From Sanghuangporus weigelae (lineage: Eukaryota > Basidiomycota > Agaricomycetes > Hymenochaetales > Hymenochaetaceae), in assembly GCA_033182465.1 (NCBI GenBank), contig CP137320.1:1860001-1924000 (forward strand): a DNA stretch of 64,000 nt, written 5' to 3'. A program made the position numbers and the translations under genes. Shown piece after piece: positions 1 to 56,841 of the stretch. Under the pieces are notes generated by a model. It did not search any database. It had not been told where the DNA came from and saw only the letters and a list, made by a program, of their open reading frames with translations. Numbering within the stretch: the first letter of the stretch is position 1; each line of letters begins with the position of its first letter.

Positions 1-1481
1 ACATTGTGCCCGAGTGCTGTCGAATTTCAAAAAGTTAGGAGCCAAAGACAGGTATGATATATTTACTTCTTTGATAGCGAGGAAATACATCTCATATTTC
101 CTAGATCGCGATCGGAATATGTTGAGCAATTGCTAGCAGATATTGCAAGCTATTACGGCTATAATGACTTCCTGGCGGAGAAGCTCTTCCAACTCTTCCC
201 GGTCCTAGAGGTACGGTATATGAATTCAGCATTATACTATCCGTCATTATTCACCGTATCTCCTTCAGGCAATTGAATTCTTTGAGTCAAACGAGCTACC
301 TCGACCAGTCACGATCCGCACGAATACTCTCAGGACACGACGAAAGGACTTGGCACAGGCCCTTATCGCTCGCGGTGTCTCCCTTGAACCCGTCGGGAAA
401 TGGTCACCCGTCGGTCTTCAAGTCTTCGAATCCTCAGTGCCCATCGGTGCAACTCCAGAGTACCTCGCAGGACACTACATGCTCCAAGCCGCCTCGTCCT
501 TCCTTCCGGTCATGGCGCTCGACCCACAACCAAATGAGCGAGTACTGGACATGGCATCTGCACCCGGAGGCAAGTCGACATATATCTCTGCTTTGATGCA
601 GAACACCGGCGTTGTCTTTGCGAATGACTCGAATAAAGCGCGGACAAAGAGTCTGACTGCGAATGTGCATCGACTTGGGTGTAAGAACGTCGTCGTGTGT
701 AATTATGATGGGCGTCAATTTCCGAAAGTTATCGGGGGCTTTGATCGAGTACTGCTCGATGCACCGTGCAGTGGTACGGGCGTCATTAGCAAGGACGCAA
801 GCGTCAAAGTGAACAAGGTATGCCCACATATATCTCATGTACTATACACCAGAATAATCATTTTGCTGTCTCTCCTTCACAGACCGAACGAGACTTTATG
901 CTGCTCTCTCATCTCCAAAAACAGCTCGTCCTCTGTGCCATCGACAGCGTCTCCCCTTCCTCACCCACATCTCCGGGAATCGTTGTCTATTCCACCTGCT
1001 CCGTCACCGTAGACGAGAACGAAGCCGTCATCAATTACGCTTTGCGCAAGCGGCCTCACGTACAACTCCTCGACACCGGTATCCCCTTTGGTCGGGAAGG
1101 CTTCACGCGATTCCGCGGGAAGAAATTCGACCCAAGCGTAAAGCTCGCTCGCCGATTCTACCCACACGTACATAACATGGATGGATTCTTCGTTGCGAAG
1201 TTCAAGGTCGGCCGGCCGCAGAAGGGTCACAAAAAGGCTGTTACTGCAGACAAAGGAGAGGAAAAGTTGGGTGCTGTCACGAACCAGATGGACGTTGATG
1301 ATGTACAATTCAATGACGAGGAAGACAGGCCATATCTTGAAGGTTAGTTTCAAAATACTCATTCCGTGAAATCGAAAAAAAAGCTGAGGACATGCTTTCA
1401 GAGAACAAGCGACGACAGATGAAGGCCAAAGGATTGCGTCCTCTTCCACGGACTGCGCCTGCAATAAAATCAGCAGCATAG
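1..1481 (+). CDS. NOP2: 25S rRNA (cytosine-C5)-methyltransferase Nop2, 3' part
   Basis: Partial gene cut by the left edge. Visible exons are about 1-51, 105-210, 269-817, 883-1342 and 1402-1481, joined in frame to a TAG stop. The encoded part carries the RsmB/Nop2 methyltransferase core: the S-adenosylmethionine-binding stretch LDMASAPGGKST, motif IV LDAPCSGTG with its conserved Cys, and motif VI with the catalytic Cys in YSTCSVTVDENE. Family knowledge: Nop2 works in the nucleolus, methylates a cytosine in 25S rRNA and is needed for 60S subunit assembly. The tail after the catalytic domain is Lys-rich, as usual. The N-terminal half lies outside the window. The next gene converges on it from the minus strand. 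Identification is secure; the first two exon borders are less certain than the rest. Confidence 0.95.
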
Positions 1482-1789
1482 GTCTTGCTACTCTCGATAT
1501 CAGATCCACGATGTTACGCGTTTACGTTGTGCTTTCAGTTTTTATCGAATCGTTTGGGGTATTCATTACACAAGATCGAAGTAAGTATACACGTTAGAGA
1601 AGAGTCCAGCGAACGTCAATCAGTAGCGTTCATTCCGTAAAATCATAACGCAATCGTAGAGTCCTTTAGTCAAGGGTATCGTAAAGTTCCGTATCTATAA
1701 CGAGTTGAGCGTTGATTTAGTAGACTTGCTTCCTGTAGAATAGATGGCTATTAGACTTATTCTTGATGGCCCGAATGACTACGAAGTGC
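1482..1789. other. Intergenic, convergent NOP2 and short PalI gene
   Basis: About 310 bp between the stop codons of two converging genes. It should hold both 3' UTRs. No other feature was recognised. Confidence 0.6.
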
Positions 1790-2745
1790 TTACTTTCGTC
1801 TGCCTCCCCAAGCAAAGATACCACAGCACGCTCCAACACAAGATAGCCACATCAGAACGGCCGCAGCCAGAACCATCCACGTCTAATAATATCGCAATAA
1901 ATCGTTAGCTACCTCGAGGTGAAATCAGCACCAAATCAAATCAGCCACATACGCCAGTGCCCCAAGTTGCCCTGACTTGACCATCAAACTCATCATTGAG
2001 TTTATTCCGAACAACCGCCACGAAAATGACGTCGATGAGGAAGACGATCGTCGTCAGTAGCGCTGAGAGGATCGACGCGGCGAGTGTGGCGCCCGAGCAG
2101 ACGCGCGTGCCCAGACGCGGTGTCGAGCTCGAAAGCATGAATATCGCAAGGATCAGTGCGAGGAAGGCCAGACCGCATGCTGTGCAGTCCCGAATTTATA
2201 AATGACTTGGTTCCTATCTCAAACGAAAGAGAAGTGGTTACTATGTACCTATTGGATGAATGACTAGGGCAGTGGTGACAGAACGGGTGACGTCGTCTGA
2301 AATGTTATCGATACCTGCTATTTGACTGGAGAAGAGGAAGAGAGAGATGAGAATTTTCGGGTCTCCAGTGATGAAAGCAAGAAACGTACAGCGCATTCTG
2401 GACAGTCCGGTCAAAAGTAAATCCCAAATGAGGATGCGAGCATTGTGCTGCCCTATCGAAATCTTGTCCGGCAACTCTGCAAAGAGAAGTCAATAAATAA
2501 AAAAGAAATAATAAGCGGCTTGAACGAACGTACTCGACATTGATAGCATTTGTACAGTATCCCCATACACCAAACTTGACGCCGCCAGTAACTTGGACAC
2601 TAGCAACGCTTATACCCTCACTAAAGACCGCAGACAGCTTGAGCAGGTCGATCGACTTGATGATTGGCACCGAGAGGGAGACAAGCAGGAGAAGCAAGAA
2701 CGCAGCAAAAATCAAGAGAGGCGTGATAGCAGCAGCAGCGTACAT
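1790..2745 (-). CDS. Short PalI/Rim9 (SUR7 superfamily) four-TM membrane protein
   Basis: Five exons on the minus strand (2534-2745, 2390-2476, 2249-2325, 1953-2179, 1790-1882) join to 696 nt, 231 residues. The model shows the PalI/SUR7 plan: a first membrane helix at residues 1-20, an extracellular loop with the signature GGVKFGVWGYC followed by a second Cys, the segment TALVIHPI leading into helix 2, and two more helices. It ends soon after helix 4 and has no long tail. Family knowledge: Rim9/PalI proteins sit in the plasma membrane and in ascomycetes help sense ambient pH; Sur7 relatives organise eisosomes. Which role applies here cannot be read from sequence. It lies head-to-tail with a giant paralogue upstream and shares the phase-1 intron after HPI/HPL. 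Start chosen at the ATG just before helix 1; no in-frame ATG was seen further 5'. Confidence 0.85.
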
Positions 2746-3178
2746 GATGATGACCAAGAGCAGGAAGAGAAGAGAGAGAGCTGAGACTGGTGGCGAGTAG
2801 CAATATAAGAATATGGAGCTGCGGAGCGCTATATGGGCCCAGAGGCACGGTGCTAAGATAAAAAAGAACACCAAAGGACGATGTTCGCTTCGGCCCCACC
2901 CTCATTTCCAGGAAAGCGTGGTATCCTGAGCCTGACGTACGTATTCGCCACTTACACTGCACAGCCTACTTCGTTTCCCCATCTCGCGAGAATATGAACC
3001 TCCTTGCCTTGCAAGTGAATGTGGTGAACACGTTCCAAGTTATCTAATTCCCGACATCATGTTCTTGGTAAAGATAATGGAGGTTGATAAGATAATCAAA
3101 CATGCACAAATATGTACAAACAATTGGAAATGCAGTCATCTGCATCTGTAATCTTTTATACTTGAAAATGGAAATAAA
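2746..3178. other. Intergenic between the two tandem PalI genes
   Basis: About 430 bp. On the minus strand it is the 3' UTR of the giant PalI gene and the promoter of the short one. AT-rich near 3060-3180. No recognised sites. Confidence 0.5.
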
Positions 3179-6100
3179 CTAATTATAAATGTAGGCACCG
3201 CAGTATTCACAAATTCTTGTCATGTTTGTATCGCCTGGTCCGGAACCGCTTCCGCGGTCGCTGATTGTTCCAGTCTCACTATATGGTCTGTCCGACCCAT
3301 ACATCTCTGAGAAAGAAGCTTCGCATCCACTGCAGATATGATCTGTCCCGAAATTTAGTATCGCGATGCTAAAGCAAGAACTGATTTGACCTACCTGACT
3401 TTCCGACGCTTGAACCGTTTCCGCTAGGCACATAATCGTTAGAACCATTTAGTCCGGTGCGTCTTTTGGGATATTCAGTCCCGATCATGCTTTCACCTTC
3501 AACTGACGTTGACAGAGGTCGAGGCGCATATCTTTCTGGAGAAGACGAAATCGTCGAACGATTGAAGTTATCCCCAGTTTCAGACGGGAATCGTTCAGAG
3601 ACTGGTACGAATGGTTCCGAATTATCTTCTGGGTATTGCGTGACTCGATCCTCGGGAGTGTAGCTCTGGGTCTGGATGTAACTTGCCTCTTGTTCAGGTG
3701 CAGGCTGTGGTACTGAACCGTATGATGAAGCGAATCGTCCTCCTTCTGACCATGGTTCAGATCTTCGAGGGCTTGTAAACCCGCCTTCATCCACCCCATC
3801 GTAGATGGGTGATTGAGGGTCAGCGAAGTCACCTCCATCGGACAATGGTCGGTTAGACAGGCGGTCTGAAAATGGTCTGTCGGAGCCATAGTATGCTTCT
3901 CCGGCGAGCGGTTCGTTGGATACTCTGGAAGGCGAATAGACACCGTCATTCTGCGGCAATGCTGAGCGTCCTCCTGCATCTGAGCTATACTCCGTCATGG
4001 GTCTGCTGCCGAAGTTGGTCTCACGGAGGCCGTCATTAACATATGGATCATTGTCTGACCGAGAATCATAGAAAGGTTCTGCGGATCTACTCATGCCGCC
4101 TGAAGCTTGAGTCCTTCTATCGTAGCCTCCTAAACCACCTCCGAGTCCATCGTCTCCGTAAGCGTCGTCACCGGGACCAGATGCATAACCATCGGAAACC
4201 GAATAAGGACGACCGCCATCATCTACGTATGATCTTCCGGGCGAAACGTATGGATCATCCGGTACTCGGTCATCGAAGCTCCCTCGTGAATATGGTCTCT
4301 CATCGGATACGTAGTTCGCAGGAGGAGGCGAGACAGAGTTCCGATCAGTCAAATAAGCATTGTCGTCTGGCCCAGAGTTATAGAAAGGTTCATCATTGCC
4401 GCGACCCGAAATCTGAGTTACTCTATCCGAGATAGGATATTCTGTCATCCGTTGGTTACTGCCGTAGTCCCTCTCCGGTAGTCCGTCTGAGATGTACGAG
4501 TCGTTCCCTGGTTGAGAATCATATAAAGATCCTGCTGGTCTACTCATGACACTCGAAGCTCGACTTCTTCTGTCTGAGACGTAGCCTCCTAGGTCGTCAC
4601 CATTGTCTCTATACCCGCCGTCACCTGAACCGACTCTCCCGGGCCCAGGAGCATATCCATCGGAAACCGAGAAATCACGACCACCATCACCCACGTACGA
4701 TCTCCCGGGCGAAACAAGCGGATCGGCCGGTACCTGGTCATCGAAGCTCCCTCGAGAGTATGGCATTTCATCGGATCCGTAGTTTGAAGGAGGCCGCGGG
4801 ACGGAGTTTCGGTCAGTCAGATAAGCATTGTCATCCGACCCAGAGTTATAGAAAGGTTCGTCATTTCTGCCACCTGAAATCTGAGTTATTCTATCCGAGA
4901 TAGGATATTCCGTCGTCCGTCGGTCACCATAGTCTGTTACTTGAGGTTCGTCTGCGATGTACGGTTTGTCGTCCGACCGAGAAGCAAAGAAAGACTCCGC
5001 TGGTCTGCTCATAACACCCGAAGCTCGACTTCTTCTGTCCGAGACGTAACCTCCTAGGTCACCTTCACCGTCTGTATAACTACCGCCAGGTGCCGTGTAA
5101 CCACGATCACCATCGTCCAAGTACGATCCTTGACGTGAAGGATATGGACCGTTCAATCCCCGGGGATCGAAACTCCTTTGTGAGTACATTCTTTCGTTGG
5201 AACCATAACTTGAAAGAGGCCGTGAAATAGAATTGCTATCGGGCGCATAAGCAATGTCCTCTGGCCCGGAGTCATATAAAGGTCCTTCATTCACGCCACC
5301 CGAAATTTCACTTCTTCTATCCGAGCCAGGATATTCTGTCATTCGGCGGTTGCCATCATAATCCGTCACTTGATGTCCGTCGGAAAAGTGAGGCTCATCA
5401 TCTGGCTGAGACTCGTAGAAAGATCCTGCTGGTCTACTCATAACACCTGAAACCCGAGTTCTTCTATCCGAGAAGTAGTCTGGTATGCCACTGCCATTGC
5501 TTCTATAATCCGTTCTGTCCAAGCTGACTCTGCCAGGCGATGCACGGCTAGAATAATCATCAAAGGGAGAATAACGTCCTCCGCGATCGCCATTTCCCAC
5601 GGACGATCCTTGACGCGAGGTATAGGGACTTTCAAGTTCTGGCGAGATCGATCCAAAGCTCCTTCGAGAGAGCGATCTTTCGCCGGGCGCAAAGGATGAA
5701 AGAGGTCGTGAAACAGACTTCCGGTCGCTCACATACGCATTGTCCGCTGGTTCAGAATCGTAGAAAGATCCTGCTGGTCTGCTCATGGCAACCGAAGTTC
5801 GAATTGCTTCATCCGAGACGTAGCTTCTTCTACCACTTACATTGCCTGAGTGAACTCCGCTATCAGAGCTGACTCGGACAGGAGACACATAACCATCAGG
5901 AGCCGGGTAATCACGATCATCACCTTCCACATACGATCCTTGACGGGAAACATACGTAATGTCCGACCCGTCGAAACTCCTTCGAGACTGCGGTCTCTCA
6001 TCAGATCTGTAGGTTGAAGGAGGCACGGGAACCGAGGTCCGATCGTTCAAATACGGTTCCCCTTCCGCTTGAGAGTCGTAGACAGATTCCACCGGCCTAC

Positions 6101-9100
6101 TCATGATACCCGAACTTCGAGTTCTTCTATCCGAGATGTAGCTTCCTAAGTCACTTCTGTCGCCTCTGTAGTCTCCTTCAATAGGACTGACCCTACCAGG
6201 TGATACATCAGAGAAATAATCACCGGGACCTGAGTAACCTTCTTCTCGACCACCGCCTTCCGCGTACGATCCTCTGCGAGAAGCATATGAGATATCTGGG
6301 TCCTCAGCAACGAATTTGCTCCGAGAGAGAGGTCGTTCGTCGGATACATAGTTCGATACACCAGATATACTGGGACTTCGACTGACTTCTTCAGGTTCCA
6401 CGAAGGCTGACGGCACCCTTGAGACTCGGCTTTGAGAGTCATAGCGGACCGGTTCGTATTGTAAACTCCTAGACCTTGTATAACGACCAGCATTGCCGGT
6501 GCCTGACAAGTAGTCTCTATCGGACATGCTTCTAATATCATCGGGAGTTGGAGGTTCGGTGACAATGCTTGCATGGGAGCGCAAACCATTTGACACACCA
6601 CCCGATATAGGCGGCGAAGTGTAATGAGAGACAGTAGCCTCATCGTCTGAATATCGTGTATCACGTTCTTCTAGAACATAGCTGTTGATGGGACTCGCTC
6701 GCACTGGTTCAGGGTCATACGATGTAGCTGTCCGTCTTCCATCTGAGACTTCCGTCAATGGTTCCGTCCGTGAAGCGGTTGAAAGTCTGCGTTTGTCCAG
6801 ACCAGTGCCTTCGTCAACGGGTGTGAGAGGTTCAGTAATAACGCTTGCGTGTGACTGCGATCGATCTGGCATCCGGTCCGATAATGATAACCTAGAGGCG
6901 TATGTTCGCCTTTCGGTGGGCTGTTCGTCGGATAGTCTTAAGGGTGAATAGAGAATTTCATCTTCCGGAAGTACCGAACGCCGATCTGGATTTGTGTCGT
7001 ATTCTGTCATCCCGCGGTCGTTTTCATACTCGGTCTCGGTCTTTGGAGGACGCCCAGTCATATACGCATCGTCGCCTGGCTGAGATTCATATAACGACTC
7101 TGCTCCTCTGCTCATGTCATCCGTTGGGCGGGTCCTTCTGTCCGGGACGGAGCTCCCTAAGTCACTTCCGCCACTTCTGTAATCTCCTTCCACGGGACTA
7201 ACCCTACCAGAAGATACAGCATCGACAGAAGCACCCGGGTCTGAGTAACTTTCCCCTCGACTACCGCCTCCCGCGTACGATTCTCTGCGAGAAGCATACG
7301 AAATATCTGGATCCTCGGCGACGAATCTGCTTCGAGAGCCAGGTCGTTCATCGGATATGTAGTCTGACACACCAGATATACTAGGACTGCGACTGATCTC
7401 TTCAGGTTCCGTGTAGGCAGAAGGTACCCTTCGTTCTCCAGATACATAGTCTGAGATAGCAGATATGCTGTGACTACGACTGGCTTCTTCAGATTCCAGG
7501 TAGGCCGAAGGCACCCTTCGTTCACCAGATATGTGGTCTGACACCGCAGATATACTGCGGCTGGGGCTGATTTCTCCAGGTTCCACGTAAGCCGAAGGCA
7601 TCCTTCGTGCATCGGATATATGGTCTGATATACCAGATATACCAGGACTACGACTGGCTTCTTCAGATTCTATGTAAGCCGAAGGCACCCTTCGTTCGCC
7701 GGATACATGGTCTGACACACCCGATATACTGGGGCTACGACTGGCTTCTTCAGATTCCAGGTAAGCTGAAGGCACCCTTCGTTCACCGGATATATGGTCT
7801 GACACCGCAGATAAACTGGGACTACGACTGGCTTCTTCAGATTCCAGATAGACCGAAGGCAGCTTTCGTTCACCAGATATATGGTCTGACACTGCAGAAA
7901 TACTGCGACTACGGCTGATTTCCCCAGATTCCACGTAGTTCGAAGGGCCCCTCTCTGACTCCAGTTCTAGTTCTGGCTCCGATTCCAGCTCAGACCCCGG
8001 TTTACGTTCGTACGACGGAGATAGTTCCCTGTCCGCCGAACTTGGGTACAATTCGGGATCAGCTGGATCCTCTGTAATTCCACGCTCATCCAAGCTGTTG
8101 TACTCTTCAACGGGCTCCGAAGGCTCATTAACCATGCTTCCATGCGATTCCTCTGCTTCTCGTGTCTCGGTCGATAAAGGTGGTAAAGCAGACTCAGAAA
8201 CGGTGATTTCACTGTCTGGATAGCGCGAAATGGGCTCCTCGGGAACAGGTTCGGGCTCTGGTTCAGGACCATACGATGTAGCGAGTCGTTCACCATCTTC
8301 TTCGTCTGTCAATGGCTCCGTTCTCGTTGCGGATGTAATCCCTCGCTCGTCGGAGCTGTTGTATTCTTCAATGGGAGTCGGAGATTCAGTCATAACGCTT
8401 GCATTAGAGAGTGTTCGTTCTGGCGGTTCAGAATCATGAACCCGTTCCTCGGAGAGTGGTTCGTCGTGTGTCCCCGAAGGCGAATAGATGCTTTCATCTT
8501 CTGGAGTCGCCGAACGCTGAACTGGATCTGTGTCGTATTCCGTCATTCCTCGGTCATTGTCATACTCGGTCTCTGGAGGACGCGAGCTCAACTCGTCGTT
8601 TGGTCGAGACTCATATAATGACTCTGCATCTCTGCTCATGTCATCGGTGGCGCGAGTTCCTCTATCCGAGACGTAACCAGCTGCGACAAGTCCGTCTGAC
8701 ATGTATTCCGAAAGAGGTGGCGAACCGTGATCTGATAGAGGAATCTCACCATCTGAATGATGCGAAATAAGTTCCTCTGGTCCTTCGTCGACTATGGAGG
8801 CATCCCTTTCGAGTTCAGATTCTGGCTGTGGCTCGGGTTCTGGTTCAAGCTCTGTTTCTGGCTCTGGTTCCAGCTCTGTTACTGGCTCTGGTTCTGGTTC
8901 CAGCTCTGTTTCCGCTTCTCGTTCTAGCTCTGACTCCGGCTCTGGTTCAAGCTCTGTTACTGGCTCTGGCTCCAATTCTGTTTCCGGCCCTGGCTCCAGC
9001 TCTGTTTCCGACTCGGGCTCCAGCTCTGTTATTGGCTCCCGCTCTAGCTCTGGCTCTGATTCAAGCTCCGTTTCTGGCTCTCGTTCCAGCTCTGTTTCCG

Positions 9101-11685
9101 GCTCTGGCTCCAGCTCTGTTTCTGGCTCCGGTTCCAGCTCAGACTCTGGTTCAGGTCCGTACGATGGAGATAGCTCTCTGTCCTGCGAGTCAGAGAACAG
9201 TTCGTAATCAGCTGGAGCCTCTGTGATTCCACGTTCATCCATGCTGTTGTACTCTTCAACAGGCGTCGGAGGATCATCTACCATGCTTCCATGCGATTCC
9301 TCTTCCTCTCGCACCTCGTTGGATAAAGGTGGGGAATCGTACTCGGAAATGGTAACCTCACTGTCTGGATAGCGTGAAATGGATTCCTCGGGAACAGGTT
9401 CGGGCTCCGGTTCGGGACCATACGATGTAGCGAGTCGTTCACTGTCTTCTAGCTCTGACAATGGCTCTGTTCTTGGTGGAGATGTAAGCCCACGCTCGTC
9501 CATACTGTTGTATTCTTCAACGGGAGTCGGAGGTTCAGTCATAACGCTTGCATTAGAGAGTGCTCGTTCCGGTGGTTCAGAATCATAAGCCCGTTCCTCA
9601 GAGAGCGGTTCGTCGTATATTCCCGAGGGCGAATAGATGCTCTCTTCTTCTGGAGGTACCGAACGCTGAACTGGATCTATGTCGTATTCCGTCATCCCTC
9701 GGTCATTTTCATACTCGGTCTCTGGAGGACGCTCGGTCATGTATGAACCGTCGCGAGGCTGGGACTCATAGAACGACTCTGCATCTCTGCTTATGTCATC
9801 CGTAATGGGAGTCCTCCTGTCCGAGACGTATCCAGCTGCAACAGGTCCCATGTCTGAGTTAACTTCTCTATCCGAGTAGACACCATCACGGGAAGCAATG
9901 TCAGCATAATCATCGGAAACGGAGTAGCGATCTCCACGATCTCCATCCTCCAAATACGACCCTTCACGCGAGGCATATGGAATATTTGACTCCCTAACGC
10001 TACGAGTGCGTGGTCTCTCATCAGAAATGTAGTCTGAAACCCTCGCTTCACTTTCGAAGCCAGGTGTGCTGGGATCACGTCCGTAAGAATCCGCATAGGA
10101 AGGGGAAGGCGTCCGTGAAACAGCGTTCTCGGGAGCATAGCCGACCGGCACCTCTTCGAAGCTCCTAGACCTCGTATACCGACCTGCATCGCCCACTTCT
10201 GATGCATATCCTCTATCCGGCACGCCCATGTCATCATCGGATATTACATCTATGCAAAGTATATGATCAGCATTTCCAAGCGAGTCCGCTTAATATCGCA
10301 ACCTACCACTCGCGGTTCTGCTTATACGTCTGCGAAGATCATCAGAACCACTTCTGAGCTCAGATACCCGCATAGAGCGGGAGTTAGTCATGGAAGCAAG
10401 CTCAATATCGCTTTCTCTCTCGTCTTCATCTCGGCTCTTGTCTCTTCCGAAGCAAGGACAAAGTGAGGCAAGAAATCCACCTTGTTCTCCTCGCGACTGA
10501 TTATCGTCATAATCAGAATACCTGCCGGAGATGACCGGAGACCGAGTACGAGGGTTTTGAGTGCGTCTATCGTAGCTCGTCCGGGACTGCCAATCATTGT
10601 CGCGATCATCACCATAAGCTATACTTGCAGTCCGACTGCGAACATCATAGTCCGGAGTATTCCTGTCATAGGTGCTATGTACAGAGCGCAACTCGGTGTC
10701 CCTCTTGTAAGTGGATGCATCAGAGTCGTATATGTCGTCCACGGAATTTCTGGCCCGAGTTCTTCTACTGAAAGTTATGAGTTCCAACATCAGGTGCTCG
10801 GAGTTATGATATATCTTACCTTTTACTACTGAGAACGCATAACAAGATTGTGCTAATCCATAACACAATTGCTGCAACGAAGCTCAACCACGGCTGAGAG
10901 ACACGTCTCAGTAATGGATGGATACACAACTTAGATCGCACGGGACTCACAATTGCTCCAGTATGTGCTTTCATATTTTTCGCGGTACCCGAAGCTTGTC
11001 TGACAAGGGACTTCACCTCCGCAATAATTACGGCATCTACAACACATGCTGCCAACGCGAGTATGGCCGTAACCAGAGTCAGAGTGGCTGGCGCAAGTCT
11101 TAGGGATGACTTCTGTCGTGAATTTGATGTAGATTTACGTTGAAACGAAAGCTTGAAGGCGAAAGACACGGCTAAAACGAAAATAACGAAGACACCGATC
11201 GTCACTGAGGCAAATCAATCAGACACAGGCACGAGAATGAGAAGAAACACGCTGCAGTACCAAGAGGATGAATCACGAGGGCACTTGTAAATTGTGAAGA
11301 AATAGTATGTTCGAGACCAGTAAGCGTAGGTCTACAAGCATATGGTCAATTTATATGCAAGCGGGGATATAGCGGTTCCGAACGTACACGTTATCAAAAG
11401 TCCAGCCAAGCTCCGGCTTGGTGCATGGTGGATACCCGTCAACGCCATGTCTGCAGGAATGAAAATGAATTTCAGGAAATTAGTGTTGACAGGGAGGACA
11501 AGTAGCTACCGTAAGCAATATCCCCAAATACCAAATCGAATAGACCCTCCTGTGTGGTGGTCTACAAGTGTGAAGAGGCGGATTCCCTGAGCGAACGGAA
11601 CCGAAATACATGTAAGGAATAGAAGAACGAAGGCCAAGAGAATAGCTGCAGGCGCTGTGAAAGAAGTGTTGTCACGACGGCGCAT
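3179..11685 (-). CDS. Giant PalI/SUR7-family protein with ~2,490-residue repeat tail
   Basis: Eight exons (11510-11685, 11388-11450, 11261-11331, 10951-11204, 10820-10893, 10307-10767, 3395-10249, 3179-3342) join to 8,118 nt in one frame, 2,705 residues. Residues 1-212 are a PalI domain: helix 1 at about 11-31, [12 protein letters not shown] at about 46-57, SALVIHPL before helix 2 (104-121), helix 3 (141-165) and helix 4 (190-208). Residues 213-2705 are predicted cytoplasmic and disordered, rich in Ser, Arg, Asp, Glu, Pro, Tyr and Gly; 6,855 nt of this lies in one exon. A CPCFG cysteine pair near residue 317 could be acylated (inference). The last exon adds a Cys-x2-Cys ... Cys-x2-Cys pair. 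Basidiomycete PalI proteins often have long tails, but this length is extreme. Function unknown beyond family membership. The upstream start could have 5' UTR introns. Confidence 0.85.
4080..6130 (-). repeat. Degenerate tandem repeats of ~100-150 residues in the PalI tail
   Basis: The minus-strand frame repeats a module of the type [13 protein letters not shown], then Tyr-x-Ser-Asp, a varied linker, GSYVEGGDRG-like Gly/Asp-rich text, and YVSDRRTR. Anchor copies of MSRPAG/MSRPVE/MSRSAE lie near 4090, 4545, 5005, 5435, 5785 and 6105. Copies are clearly related but diverged, so the array is not recent as a whole. Borders are approximate. Confidence 0.7.
7340..7945 (-). repeat. Seven tandem 87-bp (29-residue) repeats in the PalI tail
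   Basis: Seven consecutive in-frame units fit the pattern P-S-A-Y-x-E-x-E-E-(A/I)-S-R-S-x-S-(I/L)-S-x-(V/I)-S-D-x-(I/V)-S-x-(E/A)-R-R-x. Units are about 29 residues and differ at a few sites each. A related single unit lies near 6340-6415. The close spacing and similarity point to expansion by unequal exchange. Confidence 0.85.
8800..9165 (-). repeat. Glu/Pro octapeptide repeats (TELEPEPE type) in the PalI tail
   Basis: About fifteen copies of an 8-residue unit close to T-E-L-E-P-E-P-E, that is, a 24-bp DNA repeat built from GGCTCTGGTTCCAGCTCTGT-like text on the plus strand. This gives a strongly acidic segment. The plus strand reads as Ser/Gly/Val repeats in an open frame, judged a by-product of the minus-strand codons. 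Confidence 0.8.
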
Positions 11686-32873: not shown

Positions 32874-35800
32874 ATGCCCGACTCAGCCCCATGGGACCCA
32901 ACACGAGCCAAGGTACTTTCTCCCTCTTTCTCCTTTTTTCTCTCTCCTGATTGATTTGGTATGTCCGGCAGGCCCAAATCCGTCTGGCTGCCCAGCGACT
33001 CGGCCAGCTGCAAGACAGGAAAGACTCGCTCGCCCACATCACGAGTAAAGACATCGCAACGCTCCTCGGTCAGCGAAATGTCTCCTTGGCGCGCACCAAG
33101 GCGCAGAACCTCATGAACGAGGACGCCGTCAGCAATGCAATGGAAGTGCTCGAGATGTACTGTGCTCTCGTGCTTGAACGGTTCTCGGAGCTTGAGAAGG
33201 AGTAAGTTGCTGCTTAGTGTGTCCGATTGTGCGCGTTGTCAAGCCTGATTCGTTCTAGTGAGCTCAAACTCATCCCTTCCATGGTTGAGGCCGTTGCGAC
33301 AATTATTTATGCGGCGCCGTTCACGGAATGTCAAGGTACGTCGTGACTTCTGGTGTTCCACGGACCTTTGTCCTATTGTTTCTATCTAGAGCTGCTCGTT
33401 GTACGTGGGATACTCATGGGCAGACTGGGATCTGACTTCTCCCAGTCGGCCCTGTACAATAGCGACGGTCATGTATCTCAGCGTGTGAGAAGCTTTTCTT
33501 CGGCTACCTGAAAATATTGATCCCTAACATGTCTCCACGAATTTAAAGATAATTCGCTTAATGCATGCATCGCTCTCAGCGGATGATGTTGACGCGTACC
33601 TCTTCAACATTGCTCACAAATTCGGTGTCGACTGGAGACCTCGTATGAAAACAGAACAGAAGTGAGTGGACACGTTCTGCTGTATGTATCAGAAACCGTA
33701 TTCAATTACATTGGGTGCAGACTAGCTATTCTCTCCGAAATGCTAGATGCTTCTGATATCATGAGCACAGTTGACTTGGTGAAACTTCGAGAGGTAGCTT
33801 CTTCTGGTCAGTAACCATCTCGCTATTCTAAATTTAGACAGAATTACTCAACCTTGGACTAGGCATTCCTGTTGATCCGTCATGGCTCAGGCCACGAGTG
33901 TGGAAGTGAGCAATTCACTAAGTTCGGTGTCTCGAACAAATTCTCATGGACATTCGTCTAGACTCCTGTTGGGTACAACTCCATTGATGAAGGCTCAATG
34001 GGAATCCGAATCTCAGAAGAAAAGGGAGGGTTATTACGTGAGTGAGACGTTCATCCCTTTGCTCAGAACGCTTATTTGTCCTGGATAGGATCTTATTCGA
34101 CGCCTTTTGGTCAACATGGCCTCGCTTCCTCCTCCTTCCACTCCGCTGTCGCATCCAGACAAATCTTTGCTTGCACTTGTCGAGTCACTGAGCAGAGTTC
34201 CAGCTCATCTGTTTCGAGGTCTTGAAGACGAGATCGAACAATCTGCTGCTTGTCCACTTCATGAGTCTGCATCCCCAGATATCAAGATCGGATGTGCTTT
34301 TGCACTGGACGTGCGACTGCAACTCATTCAAGATCAGTCTCCCAAAGACGATGATGATGAGTCATTTAGCAGTACACCAGAAATCCGACTTGATTCTGGT
34401 AGCGCACCGACATCGCCTCAGGAGGCTTCATTCAGTCCTTCAGACGTAGCGCAGGGTACATCGCAGCAACAACCTAAGACTCTATCGATTTCTTCCGCAC
34501 TTTCTCCAAAGGTCTTCAGGAGCATACCTGCTCACCCGTTCCATATCTCTGCTCTGCTCCGATTATTATATATACACAAGTCTTTAAACCCTGGATCAGA
34601 ATCACCGCATCTTGCTTCTTTACTCGTTCCATTGTATACGGTGATGAATCAGGAAGCGGAGCCTGCTGAAGCAGCGCACGCAGAGGCAGATACGTTTTGG
34701 TTATTCGAGGTTCTGATCCGAGAGGTATCTGAGCTTGACGAGACTGAAGGTGGACTGGTATGGATGAATAAATTCCGAGAAAGGCTTGCTGTGGCTGATA
34801 ACGAGTTGCTGGAAGATTTGGTAAATATAGTTCATATTTCAAACCACTACGCTTTGCTGATAAATATGTGCTTGCTTAGACGCTCAAAGGCCTTGATCCT
34901 GGGTTACCGCAGTATTCATAGTATGTGGTTTCTTCTACGCACATGCAATATTGTGACCCAAACACATATTTCCAGTCGATGGCTTGCTCCTGTACTCTCG
35001 CATACTCTTCCGCTTCCTGCCGTCTTGATGACATGGGATGCTATCTTTGCCCAAGCTGAAATGACACGACAATCTAATCCCCGATTGGAACATTTATTGG
35101 ATATCTGTACTGCTATGCTCGTGCGGGCACGCGCTCAATTATTATTGTACGTACCTCATATCTTCTACCAGGTCTATTCTGACATCCTGTTACTGTTGTT
35201 TAAGACTGGGGAAAGGCGGAAGGAAGTCGCCTAGTTTATGGGATGTCGAGCCGTCTGGCGTTGCACGTCAGACACTTCGGCCGTGGGAGCTGGGTGATGC
35301 TTTCATGGAGGGTATGACGCTCCTTCAGAACTATCCAGTCGATTACGCTGGCGGCATGGAACGCATTCTGCAGGTCGGGGGAGACATCCTTATACAACGA
35401 GAGCAGCTCACGAAGCCGTCGCAGAATCAGAACTCCGGCCTCGGTGCTATGATACGTAATAAGGTGTGGAGAGGTATCACGAATCAGTCGGCTGTTGAAC
35501 CGGAGGACAAATCGCCGGAGGATAGCGACGAAGAGACGGAGGATGAGACTGAGACTGAGAACGAGAATGAGCGTGCTCGGTCGAACACCATCACTCAATT
35601 ATCAGCGAGCAATTCAGGTTGGGGTTCCTACTTGAAAACTACTGTGATTCGGGGAATCACAAATGAGAGCGCAATGGATCCTGAATCCTCTCGTACCTCT
35701 CCTGTCCTGTCGCCCGTTCCGTCGCCGACTCGGCCTTCTCATGACCTCCCACCTGCGGCCCCATCACCAGTTCCGGAAGAGAAGCCTTCTTTATTAGCCG

Positions 35801-37518
35801 TTCCAAACACAGGCTCTGGTCTTTGGGGCTATGCGGAGAAACTCCGACAGTCCGACATGGCAGCGAAACTGGCGAAGGCTAGCACAAATCTCTCGGCCAA
35901 GGCCTTAGATGCCTGGACCTCGCGGAATGCCGTAGTACACGGTTCGTCGACTTCTGAGAAGCAGCAAGCTACTATCACCACTCAGACGAACCCGCTGAGT
36001 CTCGGAAATAGTAGAAACGGGATTAGACATGGCTCAATGCCAAATATTCATCACCCAGAGCCTTATTCTCCTCCGCCTCGACCGGCTTTCTTCAAGGCTC
36101 CCCGTGATACGCGAGTATTCTCTTCAGACGAGATCAACTCATTGAAACTTCCAGATAGTCCCGAATCGGGCAATTCCTCGTTATCCGCATCGACCCTTTC
36201 CGCTGGAAGTCATACTCGAGCAGGATCACTTGCTTCAGTGCTACCATCCTGGGCCAGTGGACAATCCAGATCACCGTCAAAATCGCCGAAGCCAACCAAG
36301 TCCGCTCCGAAGCCGCTCTTGCTGAGCGCTTCCTCGCTCGTTACGGTAGGATCAGTGAGTCATGTATCCAGATCAGTAAACAGCACACCTACACCTCGGA
36401 ATCTGGACTGGTCTGATGTCAGAAGCAGCAAAGTGATGCCGTCTCCGCGACGCCAAGACTCGGAGTTCTCTGAAGCTTCCGTGTCTTCGCGGACTAGTAA
36501 CCACTCTGCATCTCCGAGAACTGCATTGAGCGGATGGGATTCGGATCAGTCTGTTAGTCGGGTCGTGCGGTTGAACCGCCAGTCGATATCGCCAATGGCC
36601 CCTGCGTTCAGGATCAATCGATCGAGCAGCAGGAACCCGTCTGTTTCGTCTCAGTCTGAGTTCGGAGTACTTCACAATAGGACGGCGTCTGAGTATAGGA
36701 CAGGCTCCGAAGGCTCTCCGCAGGTAACGAATGGGAGGATACTCGAAGATGAGACCCGAGGAGCGCGTAGCTGGGATCGAATCTCGCCGGATTCACCCTC
36801 GACTCTGCCTTCTTCGCCGCCTCCACGGACACCTGTTACGAATTCTGGTCTCATGCAATCCTCCATCCGGGTCGCTAATGCAGAGCGCCACCGGGGCTCG
36901 CTAGTTCTGAGTGAATCTGGATTTTCTGGCCTTGATGCGCCACCGCAGGGCAAGAGAGCACCTCGTAAACCCACCTCGCCAACAGTGGTGACCGCAGGTG
37001 ACACTTCGGACTCGTCTATACCTTCTGCATCTCCCTTCAGCAGGAACACACCTCGTGTTCGGACCAGACGCTTGAACGGGACAAAAGCACGGCCACCATC
37101 CCTCCGCACTCGGTCTCCTGAGGGGAGAGGTGCCTCCATCTCTATGCCAGACCAAAGACCGAGTTCGCTCGCTGCTCCAGACCTTGACTCTGAGCTTGAC
37201 ATGGTCACGACACCCAGGGCACAACAGTTCCCATCAACGTCCCCAACAGACGCGCAATCTCCACGTTCACCTCGTCGGCGCAAGGTCTCAATGGAAGGAC
37301 CGGAGCGCAGGCGGAGGCTGTCAGGGGAGACGAATGGCACGCGCACTCGCAAGATCTCCAGCGAATTAAGAAATACGCGAACCAGGAAAATATCAGATTC
37401 CAGACGCGATAGCCATGCCAACGACGGCGACGACGAAGGGTATGATGAACTGCTGAGTGCATACGAAAGTGAAGTCTCAAACTCAAAATACGAATCTACC
37501 GCGTCTTCCGAAGCGTGA
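32874..37518 (+). CDS. IST1: IST1 domain joined to a TBC (Rab-GAP-like) domain
   Basis: Twelve exons (32874-32912, 32972-33201, 33259-33335, 33390-33484, 33549-33661, 33721-33806, 33863-33905, 33962-34037, 34089-34820, 34880-34920, 34976-35146, 35205-37518) join to 4,017 nt, 1,338 residues. Residues 14-185 are an IST1 domain (QIRLAAQRLGQLQDRKDSL, SLARTKAQNLMNED, NSDGHVSQRIIRLMH), a regulator of the Vps4 ATPase in ESCRT disassembly. From about 186, LVKLREVASSGIPVDPSWLRP and VWKLLLGTTPL begin a TBC domain that continues to about YSYRWLAPVLSHTLPL. Residues 600-1338 are disordered and Ser/Pro-rich. The join is an ordinary 59-nt intron, but its first bases also form AAG TGA in frame, so IST1 alone (185 residues, end 33665) and a TBC gene starting at 33740 are an alternative. 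Fusion favoured, not proven. Confidence 0.75.
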
Positions 37519-41139: not shown

Positions 41140-42708
41140 ATGCCTCCAGCTGTTCCCATTGCATACAATGGCGGCCTGGCCACTGTGCTTAAATGGGCCA
41201 GACGGCTCCTTACAGACCCTGCTTGTGCCTGGATGATAGCGCCCTTGGTGGTGCTAGGCGACGCCGTCTTGACGCAATTAATAATTCGATTTGTTCCTTG
41301 TAAGTTCATTTCACCTTGGGGGAAGATAAGCTGCTAACTGAAACAGATACAGAAATCGACTGGGAGACGTACATGTACCACATTGAGCTGTATCTGAACG
41401 GTGAACGGAATTATTCAGCCATTACCGGCCCAACTGGCCCTCTCGTGTCAGTCGCACCTTTTTCTTGTCTTGCAAACTTCACTGTTAGCTAAATGATTGG
41501 TCTTTGAAGAAAGCTATCCTGCAGGCCACGTATATGTTCACGAGAAGCTGTATGAGGCTACGTCTTCTGGGCTTAACATTCCATTGGCCCAACAAATCTA
41601 TGGTGCACTCTACATCGTCTCGCTCGGATTGACGTGCGCCATCTACCTCAATGCTGGAGGAGTGCCAAACTGGGTCCTCCTGTTCCTTCCGTTGAGCAAA
41701 CGGCTCCATTCTATATATTCACTGCGGATGTTCAATGACTGCTGGGCCTCAGTGGGGGCTCAGGCGGCAATACTAACGCTTCAAGGTGGTTACTATACTA
41801 TGGGTTGTGTATTGCTCAGGTGACTGTTTCAAATTTCTCAAGCGTGGCTCGTTTACTGACTTATTTCGAGTCTTGCGATCTCCGTCAAGATGTCTGTATT
41901 ACTCTATATGCCAGGACTCTTGATAATCCTCTTACAACAACGCGGTGCTGTGCAATCAGCTCTCCACGTCTTCATGATGGTCCTTTTCCAGCTCATCCTT
42001 GGATGGCCATTCCTTTCAGAATACCCTTGGGAGTACATAGCCGGCGCGTTCGACCTATCCCGAGTCTTCCTCTTTAAATGGACCGTCAACTGGCGTTTTC
42101 TCGGAGAGGAATTATTTTTAAATCCCATCTGGGCGAAGGCCTTGCTGTTGGGACACGTTAGCGCGCTACTGGCCTTCGCGCACTTTAGATGGTGCAGAGG
42201 CGAAGGAGGCTTGTTGCGCGTCGTTTCGAAAGCCCTTCACAAGCCCTGGACTCCAGTCCGACCTTTATCTGCCGATTGTGAGCAAACATCATCCGGGTTT
42301 CTTTATAACACTCTGACAAGTTGGGCTTCTAGATGTGACAACTGTGCTCTGGACTTCAAACTTGATCGGCATCGTCTTTGCGAGATCCCTGCATTATCAG
42401 TTTTATTCCTGGTATGCACAGCAAATACCATTCTTAGCTTGGAGAACTCGGTATCCGCTTGTCATGAAGTACGTTTTGTCCCCCTTTGTCCGTTCTGTAC
42501 AGAATCTGAATATATTTACAGAGTCGGCATCATATGCTGCATCGAATACGCTTGGAACGTATTCCCGTCCACAAGCATATCGTCCGCCTTACTAGTGACC
42601 AGCAATGTGCTCCTCTTGGTTGGTCTCTGGCTCGGTTGGCCAGTAGGGCGAAATAGTGATAGTGTACCTCCCTCCTCCGAGTCTTCCAAGACCAAGAAAG
42701 CGGACTAA
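41140..42708 (+). CDS. ALG3: Dol-P-Man:Man5GlcNAc2-PP-dolichol alpha-1,3-mannosyltransferase
   Basis: Six exons (41140-41299, 41347-41446, 41514-41819, 41871-42277, 42333-42468, 42522-42708) join to 1,296 nt, 431 residues. Family marks: [24 protein letters not shown] (formed across an intron), [31 protein letters not shown] and [20 protein letters not shown]. The protein is a multi-pass ER membrane enzyme that adds the sixth mannose to the lipid-linked N-glycan precursor on the lumen side. The C-terminus KKAD fits a KKxx ER-retrieval signal. It starts only 139 bp after the glucanase stop and ends 77 bp from the converging TRAPPC10 gene. Model and identity are secure. Confidence 0.96.
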
Positions 42709-49461: not shown

Positions 49462-52482
<3,021 letters not shown>

Positions 52483-54005: not shown

Positions 54006-55343
54006 TTAAGCAGCAATCTTCTCGTTGAACTCTTTTATAAATGAAACCAGCTTGTCCACCTGTTCCTCTGTAATAGCATTGTAGATTGAGACTCGAATTC
54101 CTAGGTACCAAAATCTTAGAACAAAAGGAGACAGAACGTCGAATTGGCATACCTCCGACTGAGCTATGTCGACGCATGAGTCAGTAAAAAACACCTATCA
54201 GACCGAAAGCATCGCTTACCGATGACCTTTCATGGATTTGAAGCCCTGTGCTTCGCCAGAGGCCAAGAATTGCTTTTCTAACTCCTCATCTCTACCTCTG
54301 AAGACGACATTCATGCAGCTCCGTGATCCCTCTTTAACATTGAACCGAATCAGGTTCTTGCCTTCGCTCTCTTTGAGAACACCGTACAGCTTCTCTTGCT
54401 TTCGCTTATTCGTCTCTTCGACGACCTTTAAACCACCCACGCTCTCCATACGCTCCAGAACAAGCATCGCAACGTATATAGCAAACGTTGGAGGTGTGTT
54501 GTATAGGCTTCCAGAGTCTGAATACGTCTTGTATGCAAGTATCTTGGGCACTGGCGTCGCGCCCATCTTTGCTGCTGCATCGACATCAACGAGACAATCT
54601 TCGCGCGCAATGACTATCGTCACCCCAGACGGGCCAATATTCTTCTGCGCGCCCGCAAAGATCACAGCATGGTTGGCCAAACGTGGAATTTTTCGCGACA
54701 TAAACGACGAGGAATAGTCCGCAACCAGCGGCGGAATAGCTCCACCGCCGGGTGCATCCCGCGCGAGTAAATGAAACGGGAAGCTCGACGGGGTGCGGTC
54801 TTCCTGTGCGAACTGCACGCCATCAACAGTCTCGTTTTCGCAGTAGTAGATGAGGGCAGGATTTGCGGAGAACTTGAAGGCTTCATGTGGCGGGATGCCC
54901 GTGAAGCTCTTTCCGTCCGATGAATACTCGCGAGCGTCTACCACGATATTCACGTGTGCACCGCCCAGACGACGCGCTTCTTCTGCGGCCTTCTTGCTCC
55001 ACGATCCAGTAACAACATAGTCCATAACGTGCTCCTCGTGTGGTATGTTTGGGTGCAGAAGTCGATAGCGGGCGAGCATATTAAGCACGACGCTAGAGAA
55101 TTGCTGCGTACCTCCGCCCTGTATGAAGAGGATATGGTGCGTAGGGGGTACATCGAGTTGCGTCCGAATGAGTTGCTCCAGACGCTTGACAACTGCGCCA
55201 AATTCTTTCGAACGATGAGAGATTTCCGTTATACCGATACCGGTGCCCTGGAAGTTAAGCAGAGCTTTGGAAGACTCCTCCAGAACAGAGTCAGGCAACG
55301 CTGAAGGACCGGCGCCAAAGTTGATGACCTGTGTCCGTTCCAT
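54006..55343 (-). CDS. SER1: Phosphoserine aminotransferase
   Basis: Three exons (54220-55343, 54153-54163, 54006-54100) join to 1,230 nt, 409 residues. The middle exon is only 11 nt and codes part of SVGG. Family marks: INFGAGPSALP, ILFIQGGGTQQFSSV, VTGSWSKKAAEEA, ADYSSSFMSRKI, the PLP lysine in AGAQKNIGPSG (about 234), SLYNTPPTFAIYV and the C-terminal HRSVGGIRVSIYNA. It turns 3-phosphohydroxypyruvate into phosphoserine with glutamate as donor, the second step of serine synthesis. The tRNA-Ser gene lies 108 bp from its 3' end; probably chance. Skipping the 11-nt exon would break the frame, so it must be spliced in. Confidence 0.96.
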
Positions 55344-56841
55344 GACTTGCGAAGTAGAAGAAAACAGCTCGAGTCATTCTCTACATTTCGCACACGCACA
55401 ACAAAATTGTATTCCAAATCCGTACGGATCGACGTACGTACTTTGTATATATGACGTAAAGCCGGACGAACGAATATGTCAGCGTCAGCGCCTTCGCTTC
55501 GTGCGATGGGAATCAATCCCAATTCACGTTCCGCTGTTTTCAGTAGCTCTTTCTTGCAAGTGCGGCAAGTGAGTAAACCAGCGTTCGAGCGAATGTTCTG
55601 GACGAATCCCATCATGCCACCAACTCGGACAAAGTCAAAAACAAATTGAACAGTACACTCTCGCTCTCGCTGGCAGTCCAACGCAACGGAGCTGAGCTGT
55701 GATGTCTGACTGATCCGGGGCATCTCGAACTGACCTGATCGTCAGACGCTTTCCCATCCCATTCTTCAGGCCTCACACTGGTCTCACCCGGGATCGACAA
55801 GGTTTATGGGCGACTGTAAATCAAACCTTCGACTCAAGGCACTCGGTCGTCATCCAAGCCGAAGTGATTCCATCTCGAAAGATAACAACTGCATGATTCC
55901 AGATAAGTAAATTCCTCGTCTGATACGAACGCATCCTTTGGCTTCAGGAAGCCTGCCCTGATGCCACGAGTCAGATCATGCGACCCACGACGCGTCTACG
56001 GAAGAAAAAGAAACCAAGAACAGAACTTTCTATCGTACGATCCTTGCATCTCTTCCCGCACACAAAATTGTTTGACCTGAATGATTGAAGCAATAGAGAT
56101 AGCAATACAGTACTTGTGAAAAAATCAAGTTTATCCATTTGGTGATGATGCAATTTGCAGGTACGTACTACAGCAGGAAGACTAGATACTGATGCAGTAG
56201 AGTATTTATGGGAACGAGAGAAGAGATCGCAAAGATATGTAGAGATCGTTGGGCGTAGCCCTGTTAAAGCGAGAGCGTCGCAAAAGCAAATACGAAGATT
56301 CAAAAATATATATAAAGGAAAAGGATCAAAGGGACGTGAGGCTTGAGGATAAAGGGTAAAAAAAGCAAGGAATGGTAGTTGATACAAAAACTTGAAGATC
56401 GCAAGTTTCGCTAAAAAGAATTTACGTCGAAATCGACGATGCGGACAAAAGAAAAAAACAATTGAATTCCAAGGGAGGGCGTGATGATGCACGTAAATCA
56501 AGTGAACACGAGGCGGACTGCTTTCGGCTGAAAGCCCCAAAGAAAAGGCAACAAGTTGCACGAGTTGTACACGAATGGATAGAGGTCCGCAGGTTTCGGT
56601 CCGGAGGGGAAAGAAAGACGCCGATGGCTGAGATAAGGCGTATAAGTTGTCGTTTCAGCGATTGATAAAAAAAAAGCTATGGTCGGAAATGCCGATGGTT
56701 GTTTGCCAGAAGATACGTTACGATGAATGCAAGTGTGTGCAAGAAATAACTTGAGCGTCGTGAGATCGATGGTGAGCCGAAAACGAGGATCCAATAAGTA
56801 CAGCCTGAAAAAGAACTGCGAGCAAAGGAGAAGCATCCAAA
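55344..56841. other. Intergenic, SER1 promoter and 3' flank of hypothetical gene
   Basis: About 1.5 kb. Several medium open frames on both strands (for example minus 55971-56561) show no domain, splice logic or codon pattern and were not accepted. The right part is probably a long 3' UTR of the next gene. Confidence 0.45.

What the first reader, a model, noticed from the sequence alone, without database searches (positions are those of the whole stretch)
1790..11685. Tandem PalI/SUR7 pair, one copy grown to about 2,705 residues
Seen: two minus-strand genes with the same PalI domain (G-x-WGYC signature, (S/T)ALVIHP before helix 2) and a shared phase-1 intron right after HPI/HPL. One stops after helix 4 at 231 residues; the other continues for nearly 2,500 more. 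Known: PalI/Rim9 proteins are pH-signalling or plasma-membrane organising proteins. Inference: after duplication one copy gained or expanded a huge cytoplasmic repeat tail that could act as a membrane-tethered scaffold or condensate platform.
Basis: partly seen in the sequence, partly recalled or inferred. Interest (0 to 1): 0.75.

Follow-up and report, generated by a model that had tools for sequence, protein, structure and literature searches.

The report
Fungal SUR7/PalI protein, giant disordered tail
In a fungal genome, a small four-helix membrane protein of a common family appears to be joined to a disordered, repetitive, almost lysine-free tail of about 2,490 residues, perhaps a giant membrane-anchored scaffold; it is an extreme form of a known kind of protein rather than a new kind.

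Summary
Two minus-strand SUR7/PalI (PF06687) genes lie in tandem: a long one (11685-3179, 8 exons, 2,705 aa) and a short one (2745-1717, 6 exons, 235 aa; 231 if its last intron is kept). Five introns share order and phase. The long tail is one 6.85-kb exon plus two small ones. It reads as protein: a 2,306-codon open frame against at most 255 in 200 simulations, listed repeat spacings all multiples of three, dN/dS 0.22-0.45 in 8 of 8 repeat pairs that I chose. It has no Pfam match, no second genome match and no confident predicted fold, is nearly lysine-free (11 K, 244 R) and ends in two CxxC pairs.

The evolutionary story is weaker. The pair is 28-29% identical, the short copy scores higher with two unlinked paralogs, and some introns recur in a contig-9 paralog. 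At least nine SUR7/PalI loci exist. pH signalling is unlikely from published basidiomycete work. A cytosolic scaffold at SUR7-type membrane domains is my best reading, from homology and composition only. No transcript and no fungal relative was available.

The parts
3179..11685 (-). Long SUR7/PalI gene, 8 exons, 2,705 aa
   Evidence: Spliced model open throughout; PF06687 over residues 13-202, 6.6e-14
10820..11685 (-). Exons 1-5 of the long gene: four-helix SUR7/PalI domain (residues 1-212), with C57 and C68 in the first loop as a likely disulfide
   Evidence: disulfide inferred from recalled family knowledge
10307..10767 (-). Exon 6: start of the tail, basic next to the membrane; contains [11 protein letters not shown] (C316, C318), a possible S-acylation site
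   Evidence: acylation is inference
3395..10249 (-). Exon 7: 6,855-nt exon, disordered repeat tail
   Evidence: lies in a 2,306-codon open frame; no second genome match at E <= 0.01; no Pfam hit at E <= 0.1
8820..9140 (-). Acidic E/P-rich array, 12-bp (4-aa) base period
   Evidence: net charge per residue -0.35 over residues 641-860
7344..7946 (-). 29-aa (87-bp) repeat array, 6.9 copies; a further related copy at 6333-6420
4137..6146 (-). Long-period repeats of about 106-155 aa, anchored on YVSDRR...MSRP
3179..3342 (-). Exon 8: C-terminal two CxxC pairs (C2655/C2658, C2696/C2699), possible zinc site
   Evidence: no Pfam or PDB sequence match; zinc is inference
10250..10306 (-). Intron 6 (57 nt), GT...AG with CTGAT starting 21 nt before its end; if kept, product stops at 371 aa
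10768..10819 (-). Intron 5 (52 nt) at the domain/tail joint; if kept, product stops at 213 aa, tail-less
1717..2745 (-). Short SUR7/PalI gene, 6 exons, 235 aa; its last exon (16 nt) adds only a few residues
   Evidence: PF06687 8.2e-23

Best explanation
The long gene most likely encodes one protein: a SUR7/PalI four-helix membrane domain carrying a disordered cytosolic tail of about 2,490 residues. Shown here: domain, an open spliced gene model, repeat structure, protein-like constraint on the reading frame, composition. Inferred: splicing itself, plasma-membrane location, tail topology and function. The domain would assemble laterally in SUR7-type patches, as yeast Sur7 does without its tail, while the tail, by multivalent Arg/Tyr/Ser contacts, possible phosphorylation sites and sheer bulk, would recruit partners or crowd the inner face and so shape the patch. 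The tail grew by repeated in-frame internal duplication (29-aa, about 106-155-aa and 383-aa offsets). It is probably not a pH-signalling PalI/Rim9.
For: Domain and helices. Positive stretches (MRRRD, the loop between helices 2 and 3, SSKSRRTRAR after helix 4; sequence) put both ends inside by the positive-inside rule (recalled). Coding evidence. Disorder: 47 of 48 tail windows by a charge-hydropathy rule; mean pLDDT 41.0, 285 of 306 residues under 50, for two tail repeats with a six-row alignment. 109 [ST]xx[DE] and 45 [ST]P matches in the tail, no chance control. A Pil1 (eisosome) match in the genome, 1.6e-13. Yeast Sur7: its cytosolic C terminus is needed to oppose Pil1-driven tubulation but not for recruitment, strands or self-association (PMC10702824, passages and section 9). 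In Cryptococcus, deleting all three SUR7/PalI candidates left Rim101 phenotypes intact (PMC4393102, passages).
Against: No transcript, localisation or fungal relative was available. The fold model is of a contig-1 paralog, not of this protein, and is modest (pLDDT 61.0, pTM 0.47, five-row alignment); 0 of its 58 PDB matches reach E 0.001, the best being TARP complexes at E 0.53-0.62 and claudin-19 at 1.2. Low pLDDT with few sequences is weak evidence of disorder. The codon score did not favour the frame. Aspergillus PalI is described as three-helix with a signal peptide (PMC9021693, passages), so the first helix here might be a signal peptide. The scaffold role rests on analogy with a yeast tail of about 92 residues.
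Confidence: 0.5

Rival explanations
1. Two genes, not one: the four-helix domain ends with intron 5 or intron 6 kept (213 or 371 aa), and the 6.85-kb exon is a separate transcript.
For: Keeping intron 5 or 6 gives an early stop; exon 6 is not significantly like exon 7.
Against: All seven introns of the model are 52-59 nt with GT...AG ends; intron 6 has a CTGAT starting 21 nt from its end and joins the frame exactly. The 57-nt gap leaves no intergenic space for a second promoter. Intron 5 sits at the domain end in the same phase as in the short gene.
Confidence: 0.08
2. The long gene is a pH-sensing PalI/Rim9 whose tail docks Rim-pathway proteins.
For: Family name; Aspergillus PalI has a C terminus facing the cytosol (PMC9021693, passages).
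Against: The genome has a higher-scoring PalI-family member on contig 1 (101.6 bits, with its own tail). No YPx[LI] or PPxY match in the tail. No PalH hit, though that search had no positive control and shows no absence. Triple deletion in Cryptococcus had no Rim101 phenotype, and the Ustilago membrane components are described as missing or not required (PMC4393102, passages).
Confidence: 0.1
3. The tail is a passive product of repeat slippage, tolerated but with no specific role beyond a short functional part (basic juxtamembrane stretch, CPCF, CxxC end).
For: Tail is unique in the genome search, low-complexity, and contains short-period arrays. Arg-to-Lys changes between copies are not clearly avoided.
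Against: dN/dS 0.22-0.45 between diverged copies in 8 of 8 chosen pairs, and 11 lysines in 2,493 residues, argue for constraint on composition at least.
Confidence: 0.22
4. The protein is mainly an extracellular-vesicle cargo or organiser, as SUR7/PalI proteins are proposed to be in Cryptococcus and Candida.
For: SUR7/PalI proteins are proposed EV markers (PMC8329992, passages).
Against: Nothing seen in the tail points to it.
Confidence: 0.07

Closest known systems
Yeast Sur7 (MCC/eisosome tetraspanner, 302 aa)
   Same: Tetraspan protein with a cytosolic C-terminal tail that carries function (PMC10702824); PF06687 membership of yeast Sur7 recalled
   Different: Yeast tail removed in that paper is 92 residues (211-302); here about 2,490, repetitive and nearly lysine-free
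PalI/Rim9 of the Pal/Rim pH pathway
   Same: Same Pfam family name; Aspergillus PalI also has a cytosolic C terminus (PMC9021693)
   Different: A contig-1 paralog scores higher; no pathway evidence; in Cryptococcus these genes are not needed for Rim101 phenotypes (PMC4393102)
Contig-1 SUR7/PalI paralog in this genome (C1:685740-686294, L011)
   Same: Four-helix domain plus a long low-complexity tail (about 442 aa, joined by eye across one putative intron)
   Different: Tail is A/G/S/P/Y-rich, not D/E/R/S repeats; no introns found in the domain
Contig-9 SUR7/PalI paralog (L017)
   Same: Introns at the second, third and fourth positions match in phase; short R/S/D-rich tail
   Different: Tail about 77 aa; first intron in another phase, one extra intron, no fifth intron found
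Claudin/TARP four-helix fold
   Same: Best PDB matches of the contig-1 paralog model are TARP and claudin entries
   Different: Matches are weak, E above 0.5; not tested on the long protein itself

Membership tests
SUR7/PalI (PF06687) | Profile match above the curated cut-off | tested here: met
   52.5 bits (long, residues 1-366) and 81.6 bits (short) against 29.6
SUR7/PalI (PF06687) | Four transmembrane segments with a first-loop cysteine motif (recalled) | tested here: met
   Four hydrophobic regions (hydropathy only); WGYC and a second loop cysteine
PalI/Rim9 (pH signalling) | Acts with PalH/Rim21 and is needed for PacC/Rim101 activation | not testable with these tools
   Needs mutants; PalH search found nothing but had no positive control
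Sur7-type MCC/eisosome protein | Localises to Pil1-marked patches | not testable with these tools
   Pil1 match present; localisation needs microscopy
Claudin-like fold | Four-helix claudin/TARP topology in a solved structure | tested here: inconclusive
   Paralog model only; TARP and claudin matches with E above 0.5, 0 of 58 at E <= 0.001
Lysine-desert protein | Long lysine-free stretches that are conserved in evolution | tested here: inconclusive
   Stretches of 792 and 499 residues without lysine; conservation untestable here; between repeat copies AGR codons face Lys in 2 of 72 cases and Gly in 5

The most novel reading that the evidence does not exclude
The tail is a membrane-anchored condensate-forming scaffold kept almost free of lysine to escape ubiquitin-dependent endocytosis and turnover: a 'lysine-desert' brush with arginine and tyrosine stickers that holds a long-lived plasma-membrane domain, with tail-less forms available from the short paralog or by keeping intron 5.
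Probability: 0.15. Interest if true: 0.65.

Novelty: new variant of a known kind. Interest (0 to 1): 0.42.

Why it matters
In yeast the short Sur7 tail decides whether membrane furrows stay open (PMC10702824). If this fungus has put a tail about 27 times longer on the same kind of anchor, it offers a natural test of how tail size and charge set the shape of membrane domains. The nearly lysine-free, arginine-rich composition also makes it a testable case of a membrane protein that avoids ubiquitylation. Otherwise it is one more extreme case of disordered-tail growth.

Tried and rejected
Recent-duplication reading: weakened by BLAST bits, introns shared with contig 9 and an unresolved tree. The tree used 6 of at least 9 loci; C1:3026828, C7:421102 and C10:1185811 were dropped because their gene models were poor.

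Search for relatives: SUR7 domain in viral contigs, 3 pattern matches, 0 confirmed; two tail repeats (306 aa) in viral contigs, 0 matches; the same in prokaryote genomes, 82 pattern matches, 0 confirmed. No collection of fungal genomes was on hand, so these negatives say nothing about fungi.

Active lysine avoidance: not shown by repeat comparison. Synonymous codon score: uninformative. Sigma-70 promoter scan at 10200-10320: a bacterial model, no use here. Motifs YPx[LI] and PPxY: none in the tail. PDB by sequence: no match for the short protein or the C-terminal end at E <= 10.

Paper searches: 'pali-domain-containing protein' (0 papers); SUR7 with Agaricomycetes (3); SUR7 with 'intrinsically disordered' and fungal (2); PalI, SUR7, basidiomycete (6); Rim9, PalI, cytoplasmic tail (1); at least 3 of tandem, intragenic repeats, membrane protein, SUR7 (39, 8 listed). 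No title or abstract start listed there names such a tail; I opened passages of only three of these papers (PMC4393102, PMC8329992, PMC11656795), and the library lacks most subscription journals, so this is no proof that it is unpublished.
Full report
Gene models. On the minus strand the long gene runs from 11685 to 3179 in 8 exons and gives 2,705 residues with a single terminal stop; the short gene runs from 2745 to 1717 in 6 exons and gives 235 residues. In both genes intron phases run 2,2,1,0,2 through the domain. Introns 3 and 4 fall at matching residues (after HPL/HPI, and before the last helix); introns 1 and 2 lie about five residues apart relative to the nearest motif. All seven long-gene introns are 52-59 nt with GT...AG ends; a CT[AG]A[CT] branch-like motif was found in 4 of 7. 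The introns were placed by me from motifs and frame; no transcript was seen.

Family. Residues 1-366 of the long protein and the whole short protein match SUR7/PalI, PF06687, above its cut-off (6.6e-14 and 8.2e-23). Hydropathy gives four hydrophobic regions in each, and none in the tail. A six-frame search of the genome found 8 matches at E <= 0.001, 4 above the cut-off; one of the 8 is the short gene, and the long gene was not among them, its domain being split over exons. With the long gene there are at least nine loci; three of them (C7, C9, C10) were under the cut-off in that search.

The tail is coding. Exon 7 lies in a 2,306-codon open frame; 200 order-2 Markov simulations gave at most 255. 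The five tandem arrays and 13 direct-repeat families listed have periods and spacings that are all multiples of three (12, 87, 426, 468, 1,011 and 1,149 bp among others). Of 94 self-matches I took 8 pairs: the used frame gave dN/dS 0.22, 0.26, 0.27, 0.32, 0.32, 0.36, 0.43 and 0.45; shifted frames gave 0.67-1.75. The pairs are not fully independent. Against this, a synonymous codon score trained on 8 window open frames did not pick out the frame, and the resemblance of exon 6 to exon 7 is at chance level (19 of 200 shuffles as good) while exon 8 is suggestive (4 of 200).

What the tail is. It holds 16.2% S, 11.0% E, 9.8% R, 9.5% D, 9.5% P, 8.3% G, 6.1% Y and 0.4% K. There are 11 lysines and 244 arginines, K/(K+R) 0.043, against 0.17-0.51 in 8 other window open frames. 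With one copy of the larger repeats kept there are 8 K and 160 R in 1,513 residues. The longest lysine-free stretches are 792 and 499 residues, against at most 173 in 10 other window open frames. No cysteine occurs between residues 318 and 2655; the end carries two CxxC pairs. Parts in order: basic start with a CPCF patch; a block present twice at an offset of 383 residues (530-749 and 913-1132) with an acidic E/P array between the copies; a 29-residue array; long repeats of about 106-155 residues. It has no Pfam match at E <= 0.1 and no second match in the genome (only best candidates are scored there). Two repeats were modelled with mean pLDDT 41.0 and no secondary structure.

Relation of the two genes. 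BLAST with the short protein gives C6 85.9 bits, C1 79.0, long 73.9, C3:203k 70.9, C9 68.2; with the long protein, short 66.2, C1 52.4, C9 47.8, C6 41.2, C3:203k 28.1. In six-frame genome searches neither gene listed the other at E <= 1; the long domain listed C1 (1.2e-10) and C6 (0.033), the short protein C1, C3:203k, C6 and C9. The tree of 6 sequences supports only C1 with C3:203k (95/93); the other forks have bootstrap 25-40, and branches are long. The contig-9 paralog has introns at the third and fourth positions in the same phase, and its second (WTFKDI|P by my splice-aware alignment) matches that of the long gene (WTFDNV|P); its first is in another phase, it has one extra intron, and no fifth was found. 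C6 has one phase-2 intron near the first position. So some of these introns look old in the family. That the tail was added after a tandem duplication is possible but not shown.

Function. PMC10702824 (passages and section 9) reports that yeast Sur7 still forms strands without its C terminus and that the cytosolic C terminus is needed to oppose Pil1-driven tubulation. PMC4393102 (passages) reports that three Cryptococcus SUR7/PalI genes can be deleted together without a Rim101 phenotype. The genome has a Pil1 match. I therefore favour a scaffold at SUR7-type membrane domains over pH signalling. The model of the contig-1 paralog has four long helices (pLDDT 61.0) and its first PDB matches are TARP complexes at E 0.53-0.62, with claudin-19 at 1.2 and 0 of 58 matches at E <= 0.001, which fits a claudin-like view of this family without proving it. 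For lysine-poor stretches I read the abstract and outline of PMC10169902: introduced lysines raise ubiquitylation of some such proteins, and arginines in one of them are needed for speckles. Whether that applies here is open: in six repeat pairs AGR codons face Lys in 2 of 72 cases and Gly in 5, which shows no special avoidance.

Verdict. A real and extreme gene by sequence; a new variant of a known kind. The function is inferred.

Noticed in passing
window 224-1347, + strand: RsmB/F-type RNA methyltransferase open frames (PF01189, 3.1e-42 and 1.1e-23), converging with the short SUR7/PalI gene.
   Followed up: partly
window 41860-42708 (+), 49462-50997 (-), 54216-55373 (-): Open frames matching ordinary families: ALG3, Myb_Cef splicing factor component, class-V aminotransferase.
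   Followed up: partly
window 35065-37518, + strand: An 817-aa serine-rich open frame (17.3% S) with no Pfam match at E <= 0.001.
   Followed up: no
L011 (C1:681000-690999): A SUR7/PalI domain in one exon followed by an A/G/S/P/Y-rich tail of about 442 aa, the best PF06687 match of the genome and perhaps its PalI/Rim9.
   Followed up: partly
window 10768-10819 and 1733-1793: In both genes the phase-2 donor after helix 4 begins GTAA, so keeping the intron stops translation right after the membrane domain (long gene computed; short gene read).
   Followed up: partly
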